Shown piece by piece: positions 1 through 20,392 of a stretch of DNA of 64,000 nucleotides. Position numbers and translations under genes: made by a program. Every line of letters starts with the position of its first letter. Position 1 is the first letter of the stretch. This DNA comes from an uncultured Opitutia bacterium. GTDB taxonomy: Bacteria > Verrucomicrobiota > Verrucomicrobiia > Opitutales > UBA953. The notes under the pieces are model-generated. The model was given only the letters and a program-made list of their open reading frames with translations, did no database searches and was not told the origin of the DNA. The DNA is taken from assembly GCA_903855995.1 (NCBI GenBank), contig CAIOAN010000006.1, positions 62,001 to 126,000 on the forward strand, in the 5' to 3' direction.

Positions 1-253
1 CATCGGCGTCAGCGAAAGCGGAGAAATCACCTTAAATGAAGATCCGGTCGGCGCCCCGGGCGACAAACTCCTCGAGAACCTCTTCAACCAGATGAAGCAG
101 ATGGGGCAGGCCGCCGAGCAATCCAAGACCAAGCTGCTCATCACGGTGCAAGCGGAGGAGACCGCCCGCTATGAGCGCGTCATCAACGTCCTCGACTGCC
201 TGGCGAAGGCGAACATCTCGAACGTGACGTTCGCGGTGGCTGATACGGAGTAA
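1..253 (+). CDS. exbD: ExbD/TolR family biopolymer transporter, C-terminal part (truncated by window edge)
   Basis: Only the last 83 codons are present; the reading frame starts at base 2 and ends with TAA at 251-253. The fragment has the periplasmic ExbD/TolR pattern: a short strand around GEITLNEDPV, a helix rich in Leu and Gln, the strand KLLITVQAEETARYERV and the closing segment VLDCLAKANISNVTFAV. In this family the protein pairs with an ExbB/TolQ proton channel in the inner membrane and powers a TonB- or TolA-type partner. The N-terminal transmembrane helix with the catalytic Asp lies outside the window. ExbD rather than TolR cannot be settled from this piece. It may be relevant to the TonB-like proteins near 18-20 kb, although the genes are not adjacent. 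Confidence 0.8.
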   Translation, partial: IGVSESGEITLNEDPVGAPGDKLLENLFNQMKQMGQAAEQSKTKLLITVQAEETARYERVINVLDCLAKANISNVTFAVADTE

Positions 254-12897: not shown

Positions 12898-14643
12898 ATG
12901 TCCGACTTCCCCCAGTATGTCTACGGCCAGGGCCAGAACTCACGTTCCAGCCATCGCATGTTGCTGGGCATGGTCATCGTCGAGGCCATTGGCTATAAAG
13001 AGCGGCGCTATCGGCCCGCGTGGGGACGCATCGCCTTGCTCTTCCCTTTCTTTCTGGCTGCCCTGTGGGCTGGCACCGCGGAGCTCTACTTGTTCAATCA
13101 AAAGTATATGAATGGCATCGCGACAACGCGGCGCGGCGACATGTACCTTTACTTCCCTGACACGTTCGCGAATTCGGCCAGCAACCTGTTTCGCAACGCG
13201 GATCAAATTAAGAATCGGAATCTGGCCCTCATGAGCCGCTCCGTCGAGAGCTATGGCCGCGCCGCCCACCTTCGGCGCAAAGGAGAATATTATATCCAAA
13301 TCGCAAAAGCCGCCCTCGTGCGCCAGGACTACGCCGAGTTCGCCAAATACATCGGCACCGGCGCCAGCCTCTGCCCCGCCAATCTCGAGGCTCAGCGACT
13401 CTGCGCCGACCTGTTCTTCGCTTTCAATCGCCCGATGGACAGCTACCAGCTCCTCGAGGACTCCCTGCAGTTCGCCAAGGATAACCCGGAGCACTTCCGC
13501 ACCTACCTGTATCGGTGCTTCATGCTCGACCAGGATGAGCGCGTGATCAAAACCGCCAAGAAGTGGCTCGAGGACAAGGAAGTGGTCGAGGAAATCAAAG
13601 CCGACCTGCGCATCGCCGCCGCCCAGGCGAATTTCCTCCGCGGTAATTACATCGAGGCGGCGCGCCTCGTGAAAATCCACCGCCTAGATTACACCGCGCA
13701 GGGATACTTGCTGAATTGCCAAATTTCCTGGGAGTCCGGCGACCGCAAAGTCGCTCTTGAACTATTGAACGCCGCGCTGGCGGCCTATCCGGGGGGCAAC
13801 CAGCTCCTCGAGATGAAGGCCCGCTGGCTCAAAGACATGGGCGAATTCCGCCAAGCCCAGGATTGCCTGGCCCTGCTGACCATCAAGGATCCAAGCGACC
13901 CCATTCCCTTCATCCAGTCGCTCTACCTGATGCCAGGTGGAGCGAACCGCGGCGCCCGGGAAAAAGTCATCGAGCAGGCGCTCCAGAAGTTCGGCAACCA
14001 CGAACAGGCCATGTTGGATCTCGCCCGCTTCGGTAACGACAACGCCGACACGCAGCTCACCCTCCGGCTCATGAATCACGCGGAGGAACGCCGCTTCTCC
14101 AATCGCGTCCGCTTCATCCTCGTACACGTGGAATGCCTGCTTAACGCCCAGCGCCCCCGGGAAACCATCAAGATGGTCGATGAACTTTATAAACGCGCCG
14201 AGCGCGAACAGTGGGTCCCCGAGACACGCATCGCCTTCGAAGCCCTGCGCACCATCGCCTACTTCGCCGACGGCCAGACGGAGATCGGCTCGATTAATCT
14301 CCAACGCCTCCTGCAGAACCGCAACGTGCCACCACAGGTGCTGATCTCCGCAAGCCGCAAGCTCATCGCCGCCCAGCGCTACGACGAGGCTAACGACGTG
14401 CTGATCCAAGCCCACCTACAGAACGAAAATAATCAGGCCGTGCTGATGCAAATCGTGAAACTCAAACTCGAACACGAACGCATCTCCGCCGACGTTGAGA
14501 CCTACCTGCGCCGGCTGATGGCGAATCGTCGTCCGCCCAAAGAAGTGCTTCAGGCGGCCTTCCAGCGCCTGGGTTCGGACACGTACCTCTTCTCAGCCCA
14601 TCGCGAGCAGCTGCTGAATGACATCGAAGCCCAGCTCAAGTAG
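12898..14643 (+). CDS. Membrane-anchored TPR-repeat protein of unknown function
   Basis: 581 residues. An N-terminal cytoplasmic segment of about 45 residues is followed by one strong membrane helix (ALLFPFFLAALWAGTAELYLF, about 43-63). The rest is almost wholly helical with tetratricopeptide-like pairs, for example LVRQDYAEFAKYIGTGASLCP, WESGDRKVALELLNAALAAYP and LIAAQRYDEANDVLIQAHLQ. No catalytic motif is visible. The likely role is a scaffold with its repeats on one side of the membrane. ATG at 12898 lies in the perfect palindrome CGGACATGTCCG. The stop overlaps the convergent ApbE-like gene by 8 bases. I do not recognise the family beyond its repeats. Confidence 0.8.
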   Translation: MSDFPQYVYGQGQNSRSSHRMLLGMVIVEAIGYKERRYRPAWGRIALLFPFFLAALWAGTAELYLFNQKYMNGIATTRRGDMYLYFPDTFANSASNLFRNADQIKNRNLALMSRSVESYGRAAHLRRKGEYYIQIAKAALVRQDYAEFAKYIGTGASLCPANLEAQRLCADLFFAFNRPMDSYQLLEDSLQFAKDNPEHFRTYLYRCFMLDQDERVIKTAKKWLEDKEVVEEIKADLRIAAAQANFLRGNYIEAARLVKIHRLDYTAQGYLLNCQISWESGDRKVALELLNAALAAYPGGNQLLEMKARWLKDMGEFRQAQDCLALLTIKDPSDPIPFIQSLYLMPGGANRGAREKVIEQALQKFGNHEQAMLDLARFGNDNADTQLTLRLMNHAEERRFSNRVRFILVHVECLLNAQRPRETIKMVDELYKRAEREQWVPETRIAFEALRTIAYFADGQTEIGSINLQRLLQNRNVPPQVLISASRKLIAAQRYDEANDVLIQAHLQNENNQAVLMQIVKLKLEHERISADVETYLRRLMANRRPPKEVLQAAFQRLGSDTYLFSAHREQLLNDIEAQLK

Positions 14644-15547
14644 TCGCGTCGGGCGCGGAACGGTCGGTCACCTCGAAATAAGTCATTGAACCGAGCTTCG
14701 TACCGTCCGGCAGCCAAAGCCCCCGGCTGCAACCACGGTTCACAAACTCCTCGACCTCCGCAACATTGAGGACCGCGCCAGCCATGGCCAGACCTTCGGC
14801 CTCGATGGCAGAAGTGGCGATCGCCCGCACGGGCCCGGCCAAGGCAGCCGTCTGGCCGGTCCGCGGATCGACGAGGTTGCCGCGGGCGGCTTCGAATGAC
14901 TTGCTCGCCATGGCAAACCGGCAAAGTTTGATTTCTGACTGTGGTCCGACGCCGATGCGCCAGCCGGTGGAATCACCTGGAGGATCCAAGGCGAGAGTCA
15001 CGCTGCCGGAGGCCATCAGCAAGGCGCGGTGAATGCCCCAGCTGCTTTCCAGCATGTCGGCCATACGATCGAGGGCGTAGCCACGCACGATGGCACCGAA
15101 ATCGACGGAGGCGCCGAACTTCACACAGCTGAACTCGCAGCCCTCCAGTTTGAATTCACCGCCTCGATGGGCCTCGGTGACCTGCTGCCAGGAGGCGTCA
15201 TCAGGGTTAAACGGCATGTCGCCGCGCTCACGCCAGTAGCGGAACAGCGCACCCGCCGTCACGTCAAACGCCTGAGCGGTGTCGACCCTGACATCGCGTG
15301 AAAAATTCCAAAGCGCCTGGATGTGCTCCGAGGCCGCGACCAGGGCGCCTTCCGGCATCTGGTTAATCGAAGCCACCGGGCCGCTGTCGTGCCGGAGGTC
15401 TGTCTGGAAATCAAGATCGTCGAGGTGCTGGAACAAGGCCTCCGCCGCATTGCGGGCATAGATGGCGTCTTCAGCGGCGATTCGGACCCAGAAGCGGGAA
15501 CCAAAGGCCTCGTGCGAGAAGTTGTGGATTACAGGCAAGTCGTCCAT
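14636..15547 (-). CDS. apbE: ApbE-like FAD:protein FMN transferase
   Basis: 303 residues. ApbE enzymes use FAD to attach FMN covalently to Thr/Ser of target proteins. Family signatures seen: EAFGSRFWVRI at the N-terminus, LDDLDFQTDLRHDSGPVASIN (usual form: two-residue variants of SxxNxN), FDVTAGALFRYW, VDFGAIVRGYALDRM (usual xDxGGIAKGYAxD) and NLVDPRTGQ with TSAIEAEGLAMA near the C-terminus. ATG at 15545-15547 is chosen; it lies four bases after the glycosyltransferase stop, so the genes are co-transcribed. The expected N-terminal lipoprotein signal is absent, so it would be cytoplasmic. Some motif positions are loose, and a divergent activity is possible. Confidence 0.8.
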   Translation of the reverse strand: MDDLPVIHNFSHEAFGSRFWVRIAAEDAIYARNAAEALFQHLDDLDFQTDLRHDSGPVASINQMPEGALVAASEHIQALWNFSRDVRVDTAQAFDVTAGALFRYWRERGDMPFNPDDASWQQVTEAHRGGEFKLEGCEFSCVKFGASVDFGAIVRGYALDRMADMLESSWGIHRALLMASGSVTLALDPPGDSTGWRIGVGPQSEIKLCRFAMASKSFEAARGNLVDPRTGQTAALAGPVRAIATSAIEAEGLAMAGAVLNVAEVEEFVNRGCSRGLWLPDGTKLGSMTYFEVTDRSAPDATT

Positions 15548-15551
15548 GGGG

Positions 15552-16970
15552 TTATTTTCCGATGAAAACGCTTTCGTAGCCTTTGGCAACCAGCACCCAG
15601 TAGCGATCCCCGCCCTCACGGAGGGTCAGTTTGGAGACAGCGAAGCCAGGCACGGCGGGCTCACTATCATCCGTCAAGGGAATCAGCCGCAGGGGCGCCT
15701 CGGCGGCCCCCGGAAAGTCGCCGAAGCCAACCTCGTACGCCCGGAGATAATACGGGAGCGGCCAGTAGTGCGACCCGTCAGCCACCGCTACGTAGAAACG
15801 CTTGCCCTTGTAGGCCTCCTTGAGGCGAGCCGCACCTGCCTCGAAGGCCCGCAGGTCGGCGGTCGGCGAATGAGCCGCGAAGTCTCCGGCCGCATAGCCA
15901 GCCGAGATGAGCAGCCCAACCAAGAGAATCCCATCATGCCGCCAGCCGCCGCCCAACTGAGCGGGAACCAGCAACACCAAAGGCAAGGCCATGACGCCGT
16001 AGAGCAACCAAGGTGTCTTGTAAGGCAACAGGAGATGGAAGCAGAAAATCAGCCCGACGAAGACCAAGATGAAGTCGGTCGGGCTCGAACGTAAGGGTAC
16101 TTGCCGCTCGCGCAAATACCGCTGGAGGGAGAATTCGGCGAGCCACAGCGCGGCCCAGATCCACGGCCAATAGCTGACCGCTGTCAGCGTATCCTCGGAG
16201 CGGCCGCTCGCCACTCCGAACGAGCGGGCCAGCTGGGCCCACCAAGTGGCCAAGCCATGTACATCCGTGAAGCCGACACTCTGGAACATCACCCAGCTTG
16301 CAACTAGGCCGAGGATAAACCCCGGCAGATGACGGTCGGCCCATGGCTTGCGGACGATGATGAGCGCGATAAAGAAAAAAAGCAGGTAGGCGGCGGCCGT
16401 GACCTTGCAGGCCAAAGCGAACCCGAAGGCCACGCCCGAAAGCAGCCGCCACAGAGTCGTACTCTCCGAGGCATCGGCACGCAGCCACAGCACCGCACCC
16501 CAGGCAAGGCCCGCCACGAGGAGCACCTCTTGCACGAAATAGAAACCGAACGGAGCGCCTCCGCCAATGAGGAAGCAGAACGCCGCCGCCGTGACACGAG
16601 AGGCCAGACTCGCCCCGGGGAGGGCCAAGGCCGCCAACGAAAGCAGCAGGAGATAGCATCCGGCGACGTTGCGCAGATAGGATTCGGACATGTCCGTAAA
16701 CGCGGTCCCATTCAGTTTCGAAGAAACCACCAGAGACGTCGCCAAGGTCGGCCCATGGAAACGGTCTTCGTGGGTGCTATAAGGAATGCCCTCGGACAAT
16801 TCTTTGGCCAGCGACCACTGCACCGCCTCATCGGCATGCAAAGGCAGCGGATGCGCAAGCGACGTGAAATGAGGCGGCTGCCGGACGCCCATCAGCGAAA
16901 AGAGCAGGAAGCAAGCGACGACGGCCGCGAACCCCACCCAGGGCTTCTTCATGTCGCCCGCTTCATACAT
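15552..16970 (-). CDS. Polytopic GT-C type glycosyltransferase (TIGR03663/Agl23-like)
   Basis: 472 residues with about ten hydrophobic helices and a short soluble C-terminal region (from about residue 385). The first loop after TM1 carries HADEAVQW (45-52), an acidic loop motif like the Asp/Glu site of dolichyl- or polyprenyl-phosphate-sugar dependent GT-C enzymes. The pattern resembles the TIGR03663 family, sometimes called flippase-associated Agl23. It probably moves sugar from a lipid carrier to a periplasmic acceptor; the acceptor is unknown. The start ATG (16968-16970) overlaps the thioesterase stop in TGATG, which points to translational coupling; ATG at 16952 is an alternative. Confidence 0.75.
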   Translation of the reverse strand: MYEAGDMKKPWVGFAAVVACFLLFSLMGVRQPPHFTSLAHPLPLHADEAVQWSLAKELSEGIPYSTHEDRFHGPTLATSLVVSSKLNGTAFTDMSESYLRNVAGCYLLLLSLAALALPGASLASRVTAAAFCFLIGGGAPFGFYFVQEVLLVAGLAWGAVLWLRADASESTTLWRLLSGVAFGFALACKVTAAAYLLFFFIALIIVRKPWADRHLPGFILGLVASWVMFQSVGFTDVHGLATWWAQLARSFGVASGRSEDTLTAVSYWPWIWAALWLAEFSLQRYLRERQVPLRSSPTDFILVFVGLIFCFHLLLPYKTPWLLYGVMALPLVLLVPAQLGGGWRHDGILLVGLLISAGYAAGDFAAHSPTADLRAFEAGAARLKEAYKGKRFYVAVADGSHYWPLPYYLRAYEVGFGDFPGAAEAPLRLIPLTDDSEPAVPGFAVSKLTLREGGDRYWVLVAKGYESVFIGK

Positions 16971-17389
16971 CAGGCTTCGAAATGCTTCTGCAGCGCGGCC
17001 TTGATCTCCAGCGGCACCAGCGCGGCGGCCATCGGCCCCTGCCCTTCGCGCCAGGCATAGACGGTCGTCAAGGCACCCCGGGCGACCGCTCGGTCTCCGA
17101 CCTTGGCCTCGAACGCCCAGACGATTTTCTTGTCACCCAGCTCCGCCGGGGTCAGCGCGATCATCACGAGATCCTCTCGATGAATCGGCGAAAGGAAGTC
17201 GCACTCGACGCGCACCCGGGGAAAGCCGGTCAGCTTCGTACCCTCAGCGCGGATAAACGGCAGCTTCAACTGACGGAAGAGGGCTTCCTCCGTGGCCTCG
17301 ACCCAGAAGAAGATTGTCGAGAAATGGACGATGCCCGCCGCGTCGGTATCGGAGAAATTAGCACGGTATTCCGCGGTGAATGGACCCAT
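16970..17389 (-). CDS. YbgC / 4-hydroxybenzoyl-CoA thioesterase-like hotdog protein
   Basis: 139 residues in a single hotdog fold. The family signature FSDTDAAGIVHFSTIFFW holds the catalytic Asp (in TDAAG), followed by EALFRQLKLPF and RVRVECDFLSPIHRED. YbgC-type thioesterases cleave acyl-CoA and in many Gram-negatives open the tol-pal operon. Here the upstream neighbours in the same direction are two TonB/TolA-like anchored VWA genes, so the context is tol-like. ATG at 17387-17389 was chosen over an in-frame TTG twelve bases upstream. It overlaps the glycosyltransferase start by one base. Confidence 0.85.
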   Translation of the reverse strand: MGPFTAEYRANFSDTDAAGIVHFSTIFFWVEATEEALFRQLKLPFIRAEGTKLTGFPRVRVECDFLSPIHREDLVMIALTPAELGDKKIVWAFEAKVGDRAVARGALTTVYAWREGQGPMAAALVPLEIKAALQKHFEA

Positions 17390-17426
17390 AGGACCATCCA
17401 AGCCTTCCGTGCGAAGGGTGCAACCG

Positions 17427-18497
17427 TCAACGCGGCGGCCGCGCGGCCTTCTTGAGCCACGCCACCGACACCGAAGTGCCGCCGGAAGCCGCCACGCAGG
17501 CCTGCAAAAAGGCCTGTGGCTCCTGCTGCACCGTGAAGAGATATAGCCGAGGCCCCGAACCTCGACCCGCCTTAGAAAAGGCCTCCAGCCATTCGCGTTG
17601 CCAATGCGTGGGTACCTTCGGGGCCGTGCCGACGCGGTGATAAGAACTGTCGGAGTAAATCAGATGCGGAGCACCCCCTTTCTTCGCTTCGTAAAGGCGA
17701 ACGCCATCCTGGAAATCAGAGAAGACCACCAGGGCGTCATAAGATTCGGACAGGAGCCGATCCATCCAGGCACCAAGCGATCCCTGCTCGCAGGCCGTCT
17801 TAATCTTGGCCTGCACCTGCCGGCCGTTGGCCGTCAAGGTCGTCAGCACCGTCTGCGAAGGACCTTGCCTGAGTTTGGGTGCGAGGCCGTGAAAACGTCG
17901 CCCGTGGACGACCATGTCGCCCAACCCGACCACCCTGGCCCCATCAAAGCGAAAAACATCTGCGGCAGGAAATTGCTTCCTGATTTCGGCCTCCACGCGC
18001 GGCAGATAAGCTTTCATCGAACCCGAACAATCCAAGTAGACGGCGACCCGGCGGGCCCGAATCATCGCCCCCATCACCGGGCGACCCACGAAGCCGGCGG
18101 ACTTACCTAGGCCTGCACCCAGACCGCCGCCCGCGCCCTGCCCGATGCCTCGTCCGAAAGCCCCGCCACGGCCCATCCCGGCGCCTATGGCGGCCCCGAG
18201 CATCGACGCAGACATCGGCGGCAGTGCCAGCGTGGCGCTAGCCGATTTCGTCGCCAAGCGTGCGCGCGGTATCCTGACCTTCGGATGACTCACCGGATGC
18301 ACCGAAGTGCCAGCCGACGCGGCATGACCGCCAGCGACCGCATGGGCGACAAACTCCTGCTTCCGCTGAAGGGCCGCCTGGCGGAACACAATCCAACCAG
18401 CGGCGAACACCAGCAGCAGATGCACCGCGATTGATAAAACCAAGCCGCGGAAAGAACGGCGATGAGTCCTTGGGCGCAAAGGAGATGATCCATCCAT
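17427..18497 (-). CDS. VWA-domain protein with TonB-like N-terminal anchor (paralogue 1)
   Basis: 356 residues. Order: basic cytoplasmic tail (1-17), one membrane helix (about 18-38, RGLVLSIAVHLLLVFAAGW), a linker with the segment KSASATLALP, a Gly/Ala-rich stretch (about 100-135) and a VWA domain from about residue 148 with the MIDAS motif DCSGS (156-160) and a second metal-loop block VFSDFQDG. The helix contains SxxxH (Ser22, His26), the pattern TonB uses to contact ExbB/ExbD. The protein should be Nin-Cout with VWA in the periplasm. It is clearly a shorter paralogue of the gene upstream (shared KSASAT, AVY-D-S-S, VEAEIR-FP-ADVF, GSLGAW and SDF-DGVR blocks). Function unknown. Confidence 0.8.
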   Translation of the reverse strand: MDGSSPLRPRTHRRSFRGLVLSIAVHLLLVFAAGWIVFRQAALQRKQEFVAHAVAGGHAASAGTSVHPVSHPKVRIPRARLATKSASATLALPPMSASMLGAAIGAGMGRGGAFGRGIGQGAGGGLGAGLGKSAGFVGRPVMGAMIRARRVAVYLDCSGSMKAYLPRVEAEIRKQFPAADVFRFDGARVVGLGDMVVHGRRFHGLAPKLRQGPSQTVLTTLTANGRQVQAKIKTACEQGSLGAWMDRLLSESYDALVVFSDFQDGVRLYEAKKGGAPHLIYSDSSYHRVGTAPKVPTHWQREWLEAFSKAGRGSGPRLYLFTVQQEPQAFLQACVAASGGTSVSVAWLKKAARPPR

Positions 18498-18604
18498 CGC
18501 ACCATTCTAATGACGCACGGATAGCCTCAAGGGCCCGGGAGGACGGAATCAACCCAGTCTAGAATGAGGTGAATCACTCCAGACACCGCCCAGCCAGGAA
18601 TCGC

Positions 18605-20167
18605 TCAGCGAACCGGCTTCGTTCCGGCCTTCGTCGTGACGCCTTTCAGCGCCGCATCGGTTCCGGCCGCCGGCGTGGGCGTTCCGGCGGCGGGCTTAGC
18701 GGCGACCGGGTCGAGGTTGCGCAGACCCGTAACCATCTTGGCCTGGCCCCCAGACGCTTCGACACACTCCACCAGCACGCCCTTCGGGGGGTATTGAATT
18801 GAGAGTAGGTAGACCCGTGGCCCTTTGTTTTCCTTGGCGGCGGCAAAAGCTTTAACCCACTCATCTTCCCACTTTCGCTCCTCGGGAGTACGCCTGTCCC
18901 CGCCGTTATTGGCAGAGATTTTTCCGCTGACATTGGCCTTCAGCGGCTTGTCCAAAGTGAAACTCACGTTGGCTTTGATTTCCGTGATCTTCGAACTCGG
19001 GGCGACGCCAGAGCCAACCACGATCATATCCACCTCTAGGCCCGTGGTATCCTTGGTCTGAATGACGGATTGCCCAGATGATCCGCCCGTGGCGATGATG
19101 TTGGCGTAGCGAGCGGCACCGGCACCGGCATCGCGACTATCGTTAAAGACCACAGGCGGGTCGGGGCGCATCCCTTTATCCGGCTTGTAACCCTTGGTGC
19201 GAACCTGACGCACACCGTCAGCAAAGTCCGAAAAGACAATGAGGGCATCATAATTACGCTCGTCCTTCATGACATCGAGCCATGCTCCGAGTGACCCGAG
19301 TTTGAATCCGGCACCATATTTCTTGAGGATAACGCGCCCGGCGCTGGTAAGTTTAGCGGGATTGGTATCCGTTTCGACGATCTCACCCTTCGCAGTCTTC
19401 TTCTTTCCGCCGCCGGTTGGACGATTCAGATAAGGCGTACCTTTGAATTTGTCGCCCCCGACGACCTCGGTGTCTTGAATGTTGATGAATACGCCGTTCC
19501 CCAGGAAGACGTCAGCATCCGGAAATTTATCGCGAATCTCTGCCTCGACCTTATCAAGATAGGGCAGCATCGAGGCCGAGGCGTCGAAGTAGACCGCCAG
19601 CCGCTGGGCGAAGATGTTCGCACCGAGCACAGGCTTCGCCACGAAGTTCTTGCCGCCGCCGGAACCCATCCCCTTACCCACGCCGATGCCACCCCCGGAG
19701 CCCCCGCCGAAGCCCTTGGAGGCACCGCCGGCCATCATGCCGGAGACCATCGTAGAAGCCGAAGCCGAGTTCGGAAGGTCCGGCAGTGCAATCGTGGCCG
19801 ATGCGCTCTTGGAAGTGATGCGCGTCGTGGTCTTGGCGAGCGACTTGACGTTCTTGGGCTGGATTTTGTGCTGGGTATTCTTAACCCGTTCACCCCCCGA
19901 GCCGCCGCCGGCACCGGTCGCAAAAGTATTCGGTTCTTTCTTCGCGTTATCGGTGACCGTGGAAATCACGTAGGCCGCCGCGATGAAAACCAGCAGAACG
20001 TGAATCAAGACCGAGACAGTAAGACCGCCGCCGCCGATCCGGCGCCAAAAACCAGGCTTCACACGTTTGGAACCGATTGAGACCTCGGGGGCCGCCACGT
20101 TAGGACTCTGTTCCGCATCCTGAGGGATGTCACCAGAAGGAGGGGGCGGGGGGGGTTCTTCGCTCAT
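18605..20167 (-). CDS. VWA-domain protein with TonB-like N-terminal anchor (paralogue 2)
   Basis: 520 residues. It starts with a Pro-rich tail (EEPPPPPPSGD), then a membrane helix (about 49-69, LTVSVLIHVLLVFIAAAYV) with SxxxH (Ser52, His56), a Gly-rich linker (about 84-175) and a VWA domain with MIDAS DASAS (195-199) and VFSDFADG. Compared with paralogue 1 it has an inserted segment of about 100 residues in the middle of the VWA region, rich in Lys, Thr and Ser. The start ATG 20165-20167 is the first gene of a five-gene minus-strand run, 107 bases before paralogue 1. TonB resemblance is limited to the anchor; the TonB C-terminal domain is absent. Function unknown. Confidence 0.8.
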   Translation of the reverse strand: MSEEPPPPPPSGDIPQDAEQSPNVAAPEVSIGSKRVKPGFWRRIGGGGLTVSVLIHVLLVFIAAAYVISTVTDNAKKEPNTFATGAGGGSGGERVKNTQHKIQPKNVKSLAKTTTRITSKSASATIALPDLPNSASASTMVSGMMAGGASKGFGGGSGGGIGVGKGMGSGGGKNFVAKPVLGANIFAQRLAVYFDASASMLPYLDKVEAEIRDKFPDADVFLGNGVFINIQDTEVVGGDKFKGTPYLNRPTGGGKKKTAKGEIVETDTNPAKLTSAGRVILKKYGAGFKLGSLGAWLDVMKDERNYDALIVFSDFADGVRQVRTKGYKPDKGMRPDPPVVFNDSRDAGAGAARYANIIATGGSSGQSVIQTKDTTGLEVDMIVVGSGVAPSSKITEIKANVSFTLDKPLKANVSGKISANNGGDRRTPEERKWEDEWVKAFAAAKENKGPRVYLLSIQYPPKGVLVECVEASGGQAKMVTGLRNLDPVAAKPAAGTPTPAAGTDAALKGVTTKAGTKPVR

Positions 20168-20314: not shown

Positions 20315-20392
20315 TGCAGGGTGGAGCAGCCCGGTTAGCTCGTCAGGCTCATAACCTGAAGGTCGTAGGTTCAAATCCTACCCCTGCACCCA
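20315..20392 (+). tRNA. Initiator tRNA-fMet (CAT)
   Basis: Complete cloverleaf, 78 bases including the encoded CCA. Acceptor TGCAGGG/CCCTGCA, D arm GAGC/GCTC, anticodon stem TCAGG/CCTGA around CTCATAA (anticodon CAT), T arm with GGTTCAAATCC. The initiator is identified by A11:U24 in the D stem and near identity of GGAGCAGCCCGGT and AACCTGAAGGTCGT to bacterial fMet tRNAs. Two departures are noted: U1-A72 can pair, where most bacteria have a C1xA72 mismatch, and only two of the three anticodon-stem G:C pairs are kept. Confidence 0.95.

What the first reader, a model, noticed from the sequence alone, without database searches (positions are those of the whole stretch)
14636..20167. Tol/TonB-like locus in which VWA domains sit on an energy-transducer anchor
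Two tandem minus-strand genes encode a single N-terminal membrane helix with SxxxH (Ser22/His26 and Ser52/His56), the pattern TonB uses to contact ExbB/ExbD, plus a Pro-rich tail in the longer one and a Gly-rich linker. In place of a TonB C-terminal domain each has a VWA domain with an intact DxSxS metal site. The next gene is a YbgC-like thioesterase, the usual companion of tol-pal, then a GT-C glycosyltransferase (coupled) and an ApbE-like protein (4-base gap). An ExbD/TolR gene ends at 253 but is 17 kb away. I propose a proton-motive-force-driven envelope machine whose periplasmic output is a VWA domain.
Basis: partly seen in the sequence, partly recalled or inferred. Interest (0 to 1): 0.75.

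Follow-up and report, generated by a model that had tools for sequence, protein, structure and literature searches.

The report
VWA heads on TonB-like motor anchors
Two neighbouring genes of a Verrucomicrobiota bacterium encode a von Willebrand-type binding domain on the kind of membrane anchor that proton-driven envelope motors pull on; such proteins were described in 2025, but relatives with other heads on the same anchor were not found in the papers searched.

Summary
P0001 (18605-20167, -) and P0002 (17427-18497, -) each have one N-terminal membrane helix with SxxxH, a Gly-rich linker and a VWA domain with intact DxSxS. They belong to a large family: S and H are kept in 71 of 74 distinct own-family helix segments, and S/TxxxH occurs in 66 of 86 distant members against 1 of 123 unrelated N-terminal segments. 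The homologous TPR-TPR-ExbB-ExbD-ExbD operon ends at window base 253; where one contig carries both, motor and P0001 match lie 18-21 kb apart (19 of 19). VWA force transducers of this kind were published in 2025 (PMC12204202), so the core idea is not new. The YbgC/tol-pal label is not supported. Beyond that paper: the same anchor carries other heads, a PA14 lectin-like fold and an alpha/alpha toroid, some also directly behind ExbB-ExbD-ExbD; and in this GTDB family the transducers have left the motor operon and multiplied (1-7 anchors per genome). Motor coupling and ligand remain inferred.

The parts
18605..20167 (-). P0001, 520 aa: cytoplasmic Pro-rich tail, SxxxH membrane helix, Gly-rich linker, VWA domain with insert, C-terminal Arg
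19958..20038 (-). P0001 membrane helix (about residues 44-70) with Ser52 and His56
19616..19957 (-). P0001 linker (TSKSASATIALPDLP, then Gly-rich), shared with PA14-type paralogues
19571..19585 (-). P0001 MIDAS DxSxS (residues 195-199)
18911..19126 (-). repeat-like insert in the P0001 VWA domain (about residues 348-419), similar to segments of giant ORFs in G041
17427..18497 (-). P0002, 356 aa: SxxxH membrane helix, Gly-rich linker, VWA domain
18372..18452 (-). P0002 membrane helix (16-42) with Ser22 and His26
17439..18083 (-). P0002 VWA domain (139-353), mostly pLDDT above 90
18018..18032 (-). P0002 MIDAS DxSxS (156-160)
16970..17401 (-). 4HBT thioesterase, syntenic in relatives; below the YbgC equivalog cut-off
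15552..16970 (-).
14636..15547 (-). ApbE (ORF opens to 15619), syntenic in relatives
2..253 (+). 3' end of ExbD2, last gene of the TPR-TPR-ExbB-ExbD-ExbD motor operon (G000:C6, upstream of the window)

Best explanation
P0001 and P0002 are inner-membrane force transducers of the vWA kind. The N-terminus is cytoplasmic; the SxxxH helix docks on the side of an ExbB-ExbD1-ExbD2 proton motor; the disordered Gly-rich linker crosses the periplasm; the VWA head grips a partner through its MIDAS metal site and is pulled when protons flow. The motor is most likely the TPR-TPR-ExbB-ExbD-ExbD operon that ends at window base 253, whose relatives elsewhere carry such a gene as the next gene. In this family the transducer genes have left the operon and multiplied, so one motor could serve several heads (VWA or PA14-fold). 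Shown: the architecture, conservation, predicted folds and operons in relatives. Inferred: docking, force, the ligand, and use of that motor rather than another.
For: S and H are kept together in 71 of 74 distinct own-family helix segments; S/TxxxH in 66 of 86 distant members against 1 of 123 background. Of 40 VWA-type loci chosen from 36 GTDB families, 30 have the gene <300 bp behind an ExbD on the same strand. In 11 of 20 loci from other families of the order the gene follows ExbB-ExbD-ExbD directly, and these genes match the own C6 operon in order, with one or both TPR genes upstream. The motor ExbB is found in 58 of 61 own-family genomes, one match each at E<=1e-30. Of 40 of those 58 compared, 19 have motor and best P0001 match on one contig, 18-21 kb apart on opposite strands each time; 21 have them on different contigs. 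DxSxS is intact in 45 of 45 own-family VWA rows, 44 anchored and one not. The anchor-linker is shared between paralogues with unlike heads (P0001 56% to a PA14-type paralogue, 33% to P0002). A published AF3 model docks such vWA proteins on the motor through the conserved His (passages read).
Against: No transducer lies next to the motor in any of the 30 own-family motor loci read, of 58, and the genome has five ExbD frames in four places, so the partner is not proved. Three motor-adjacent VWA proteins lack the His (L349, L353, L355) and in others Ser is Ala or Gly. Among VWA-type proteins the His is hardly more frequent beside a motor (35 of 38) than away from it (14 of 16). Three own-family PA14-type genes of one genome (G057) lost both S and H but keep the linker. 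The 30-of-40 sample was taken from hits to a profile (A4) that itself holds operon-linked members, so it is biased upward. The relatives in A4, several of them operon-linked, mostly lack DxSxS (1 of 14 rows), so the heads need not do the same thing. No complex could be modelled.
Confidence: 0.7

Rival explanations
1. Same transducer, other motor: the paralogues use another ExbBD or TolQR pair of the genome, and the 18-21 kb linkage to the C6 operon is only old synteny.
For: Five ExbD frames in four places, one beside a putative TonB-dependent receptor and one in a TolQ/TolR-like cluster, both by my reading of translations; no adjacency in the own-family loci read.
Against: Operon homology in other families of the order and constant linkage.
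Confidence: 0.15
2. A passive VWA adhesin or scaffold: the helix is a relic anchor and no force is transmitted; the VWA pair acts with the neighbouring type IV pilus genes or the 4HBT-GT-C-ApbE genes.
For: The pair follows PilB-PilT-PilB-PilC and precedes 4HBT-GT-C-ApbE in 7 of 8 own-family loci compared; a signal-peptide-like VWA copy without this anchor lies between the two genes in some genomes.
Against: Co-conservation of Ser and His in a helix where most other positions vary.
Confidence: 0.12
3. A TonB or TolA proper that lost its usual C-terminal domain and serves receptors or Pal.
For: SxxxH helix, cytoplasmic N-terminus, Pro/Gly-rich segments.
Against: No TonB or TolA domain in Pfam at E<=0.1; no tolB or pal gene seen among the neighbours.
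Confidence: 0.03

Closest known systems
vWA force transducers, first family (Williams-Jones et al. 2025, Mol Biol Evol, PMC12204202)
   Same: TMH with the conserved Ser/His motif, disordered linker, vWA C-terminal domain; [quoted passage not shown]
   Different: Here the genes are detached from the motor operon, paired and multiplied; DxSxS is intact in 45 of 45 own-family rows; the anchor-linker is shared with PA14-fold paralogues. PA14, toroid, prenyltransferase, squalene and lectin have 0 occurrences in the paper's main text (supplements not seen)
TonB / TolA
   Same: Topology and SxxxH helix; TonB's S16/H20 is recalled, from no call
   Different: No TonB/TolA C-terminal domain; Leu and the second Ser of the SHLS motif were not tested position by position
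TPH-vWA proteins, second family of the same paper
   Same: Membrane-tethered VWA with a TolQ-like partner
   Different: They carry the proton-binding Asp in the helix and lack tolR genes; P0001 and P0002 have no Asp within the helix, and the likely motor has two ExbD genes
PA14 carbohydrate-binding domains (Marinomonas primoryensis adhesin, Epa1)
   Same: Fold of the alternative head (L173): Foldseek E 9.8e-7, prob 1.00; VIA Z 12.2, rmsd 3.5, 163 aligned; a DD pair in 27 of 33 and 11 of 13 rows
   Different: Here on an SxxxH anchor; sugar binding untested; not a head of P0001 or P0002

Membership tests
vWA force transducers (Williams-Jones et al. 2025) | N-terminal TMH with the conserved Ser/His of the motor-binding motif | tested here: met
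   S52/H56 and S22/H26; 71 of 74 distinct own-family segments. Leu and second Ser of SHLS not tested
vWA force transducers (Williams-Jones et al. 2025) | disordered linker (domain II) of about 100 residues | tested here: met
   P0002 model: pLDDT under 50 at 48-83 and 88-132
vWA force transducers (Williams-Jones et al. 2025) | predicted beta-strand (motor box) in the disordered region | not tested
   the P0002 model shows no strand in 43-138, but no dedicated prediction was run
vWA force transducers (Williams-Jones et al. 2025) | vWA-fold C-terminal domain | tested here: met
   and DxSxS; below Pfam cut-off
vWA force transducers (Williams-Jones et al. 2025) | synteny with TPR, tolQ-like and two tolR-like genes ('often', in the PVC group) | tested here: inconclusive
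   not adjacent in the own-family loci read; adjacent in relatives; 18-21 kb linkage here
vWA force transducers (Williams-Jones et al. 2025) | TMH docks on the motor through the His | not testable with these tools
   no complex prediction offered
TonB / TolA | TonB or TolA C-terminal domain | tested here: not met
   no such Pfam hit at E<=0.1
Tol-Pal locus | tolB, pal and YbgC equivalog beside the transducer | tested here: not met
   neighbours are Pil genes and 4HBT, GT-C, ApbE; TIGR02799 31.1 against 141.35 bits
TPH-vWA (second family, same paper) | proton-binding Asp in the helix, no tolR/exbD partner | tested here: not met
   no Asp in either helix

The most novel reading that the evidence does not exclude
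One motor, many heads: in Verrucomicrobiota a single ExbB-ExbD-ExbD motor drives a set of interchangeable anchored heads (VWA, PA14 lectin-like fold, alpha/alpha toroid) on one conserved helix-linker cassette, and in the window's family the cassette has been freed from the operon and reshuffled among paralogues, so that a cell chooses which envelope or surface partners are pulled.
Probability: 0.35. Interest if true: 0.75.

Novelty: new variant of a known kind. Interest (0 to 1): 0.55.

Why it matters
TonB and TolA are the textbook transducers of ExbBD/TolQR motors. A phylum-wide set with swapped heads would show that the motor is a general power take-off and that its outputs are modular, and the Ser/His pair makes that testable by point mutation. 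It also gives a mechanistic label to many VWA, PA14-fold and toroid proteins of Verrucomicrobiota that Pfam does not name or only half names.

Tried and rejected
Rejected: tol-pal locus with YbgC; TonB proper; TPH-vWA type (no Asp in helix); chance SxxxH (1 of 123 background; that one is a pilin-like segment). First notes gave '5-17 paralogues per genome'; this was wrong, because some matches are repeat segments of giant ORFs; one search shows 1-7 anchors in the 50 own-family genomes with a match (best 14 candidates scored, so possibly an undercount). One search's 83 of 88 counted some genes twice; one search gives 71 of 74. A draft said 12 of the 20 loci are motor-adjacent; the recount is 11. 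In some searches two of the seven 'PA14 adjacent' rows (L287, L288) are toroid proteins; true PA14 adjacent rows are 5 (L230, L231, L232, L285, L297). One search's residue at H-4 was misread in a few rows (first His taken); one search corrects most, but still misses the SICVH of L369's second protein. The anchor tree has few columns, long branches and one doubtful label (L062, YfbK-like, was labelled PA14): 7 head changes on the best tree, only 2 forced by starred branches. NCBIfam and PDB sequence searches gave no family for P0001/P0002. VIA Z of P0002 (8.1) is middling by the tool's own note. One search left out 18 of the 58 genomes with a motor match. The named genome scan kept the best 80 of 116 hits. 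Literature: searches (listings seen; only PMC12204202 was opened: outline with abstract, and passages). No paper on PA14 or toroid heads with ExbB/ExbD turned up in those searches, which cover open-licence PMC only.
Full report
What is there. The window lies in a 2.66 Mb, 13-contig genome (G000:C6:62001-126000). P0001 and P0002 lie in tandem, 107 bases apart, on the minus strand. Each is a cytoplasmic segment, one membrane helix with SxxxH, a Gly-rich linker and a VWA domain with DxSxS. Pfam and NCBIfam place neither protein in a family above cut-off. AlphaFold2 of P0002 on 45 rows gives a helix at 16-42, disorder, then a domain from 139 mostly at pLDDT above 90. Foldseek ranks CLCA1 VWA first at prob 0.98 but nothing at E<=0.001. 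VIA's first row is ArnB VWA2 at Z 8.1, with many near-ties that I know as VWA or VWA-like proteins (TFIIH p34/p44, Sec23/24, Rpn10); the tool calls such Z middling.

The neighbourhood. PilB-PilT-PilB-PilC, P0001, P0002, 4HBT, GT-C, ApbE is the order in 7 of 8 fetched own-family loci compared (six of the genus, one of another genus; the eighth, L086, shares only a VWA protein). The 4HBT protein scores 31 bits against the 141-bit cut-off of tol-pal YbgC. I saw no tol gene here; a TolQ/TolR-like cluster lies on contig C2 (names by my reading).

The family. A search with P0001 hit 62 of 95 relatives; with the anchor profile A1, 75 of 276 genomes of the order, 50 of them of the own family with 1-7 matches each. 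Own genome: five anchors, four with VWA and one (L039) with a different head. Among 74 distinct own-family helix segments, 71 have S and H and 3, all PA14-type genes of G057, have A and L. The anchor-linker of P0001 is 56% identical to that of the PA14-type paralogue but 33% to that of P0002, though the VWA domains of P0001 and P0002 are 43% identical. On a tree of 93 anchors thinned from 144, PA14-type anchors fall on the P0001 side of a starred branch, with 7 head changes on the best tree and at least 2 forced by starred branches (few columns).

The alternative heads. The PA14-type head (L173) is modelled mostly above pLDDT 85 and is a PA14 fold: Foldseek E 9.8e-7, prob 1.00; VIA Z 12.2, rmsd 3.5, 163 aligned. 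A DD pair, which I recall as the calcium/sugar site of PA14 lectins, is kept in 27 of 33 and 11 of 13 rows. Pfam PA14 passes its cut-off in two distant members (L286, L369) and just misses in L280; it gives nothing at E<=0.01 for the four PA14-type members scanned (L230, L232, L039, L089). A third head, an alpha/alpha toroid (SQHop_cyclase_C above cut-off), sits on the anchor in L287. Among the 30 loci fetched for the best toroid hits, 9 have an S/A-xxxH toroid protein within 312 bases behind an ExbD; 25 anchored toroid ORFs without that motif have no ExbD within the fetched 1.5 kb, 19 of them from one genus; a few with the motif also have none (L412, L413, L429).

The motor. Outside the own family, homologues often follow ExbB-ExbD-ExbD directly: 11 of the 20 loci, with one or both TPR genes upstream. 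Of 40 VWA-type loci taken from 36 GTDB families, 30 have the gene <300 bp behind an ExbD on the same strand; the other ten are L331, L332, L333, L334 (460 bp), L335, L337, L356 (1.3 kb), L358, L364, L367. Of the 20 PA14-type loci, two are directly adjacent (L285, L297) and two are second behind a toroid protein (L287, L288); 16 are not. In the phylum sample A5 hits 140 of 335 genomes and A4 105 of 335; these counts include proteins without the motif.

The own genome's version. Two TPR genes and ExbB-ExbD-ExbD lie at about C6:56.0-62.3 kb; the second ExbD ends at window 253. Its ExbB is found in 58 of 61 own-family genomes, one match each. In 30 of 30 loci read, of 58, the two ExbD genes follow and no transducer lies within about 1.5 kb. 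I compared 40 of the 58: 19 have motor and best P0001 match on one contig, each time 18-21 kb apart on opposite strands; 21 have them on different contigs, many of them short. So in the genus the transducer has left the operon but not the neighbourhood.

Differences from the relatives. DxSxS is intact in 45 of 45 own-family VWA rows but in 1 of 14 rows of the relatives in A4. P0001-class (long VWA) and PA14-type proteins nearly always end in Arg: 43 of 44 and 42 of 43, against 84 of 518 unrelated ORFs and 11 of 36 P0002-class proteins. The rows are related, so the Fisher values overstate the case. I have no explanation.

What is known. Williams-Jones et al. 2025 (PMC12204202; outline, abstract and passages seen) describe SHLS-helix, disordered-linker, vWA proteins, often behind TPR, tolQ-like and paired tolR-like genes in the PVC group, with AF3 docking by a conserved His and no known function. 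P0001 and P0002 fit this kind except for adjacency. PA14, toroid, prenyltransferase, squalene and lectin do not occur in that main text.

Mechanism and verdict. I hold it most likely (0.7) that both proteins are motor-coupled transducers whose VWA heads bind a partner by metal-dependent contact and are pulled. Anatomy, conservation, predicted folds and operons in relatives are shown; docking, force, ligand and the choice of motor are inferred. As a finding: a new variant of a known kind, of moderate interest; the modular-heads reading is the part worth a follow-up.

Noticed in passing
L287:9919-11556, L288:10389-12047, L402, L409, L411, L414, L415, L416, L417: Alpha/alpha-toroid (squalene-hopene-cyclase-like) head on an S/A-xxxH anchor, within 312 bases behind an ExbD (Pfam run on L287 only).
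   Followed up: partly
window 18605 (P0001 C-terminus) and PA14-type paralogues: Terminal Arg in 43 of 44 long-VWA and 42 of 43 PA14-type proteins, background 84 of 518; unexplained.
   Followed up: partly
window 18911-19126: Insert in P0001's VWA resembles repeats of giant ORFs in G041, with frames of 17232, 3081 and 2721 aa.
   Followed up: no
L080:7446-8222, L138:11513-12268, L141:12012-12770: Signal-peptide-like VWA copy of about 250 aa without the anchor, between P0001 and P0002 orthologues in some genomes.
   Followed up: no
L369:6143-7741: Transducer with a SAM domain before the SxxxH helix and a PA14 head.
   Followed up: no
L062:22-2511: YfbK-like VWA protein with the family's linker stretch but another anchor without SxxxH.
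   Followed up: no
L280-L284, L418-L428: One genus (f29 g95, unnamed) with PA14-type and toroid proteins whose helix lacks SxxxH and which have no ExbD directly upstream.
   Followed up: partly
L084, L087, L088, L090: PA14-type genes in tandem at a conserved site beside metabolic genes (my reading of translations), with ATP synthase genes close by in L084.
   Followed up: no
window 20315-20392: tRNA-Met (CAT) between PilC and P0001.
   Followed up: yes
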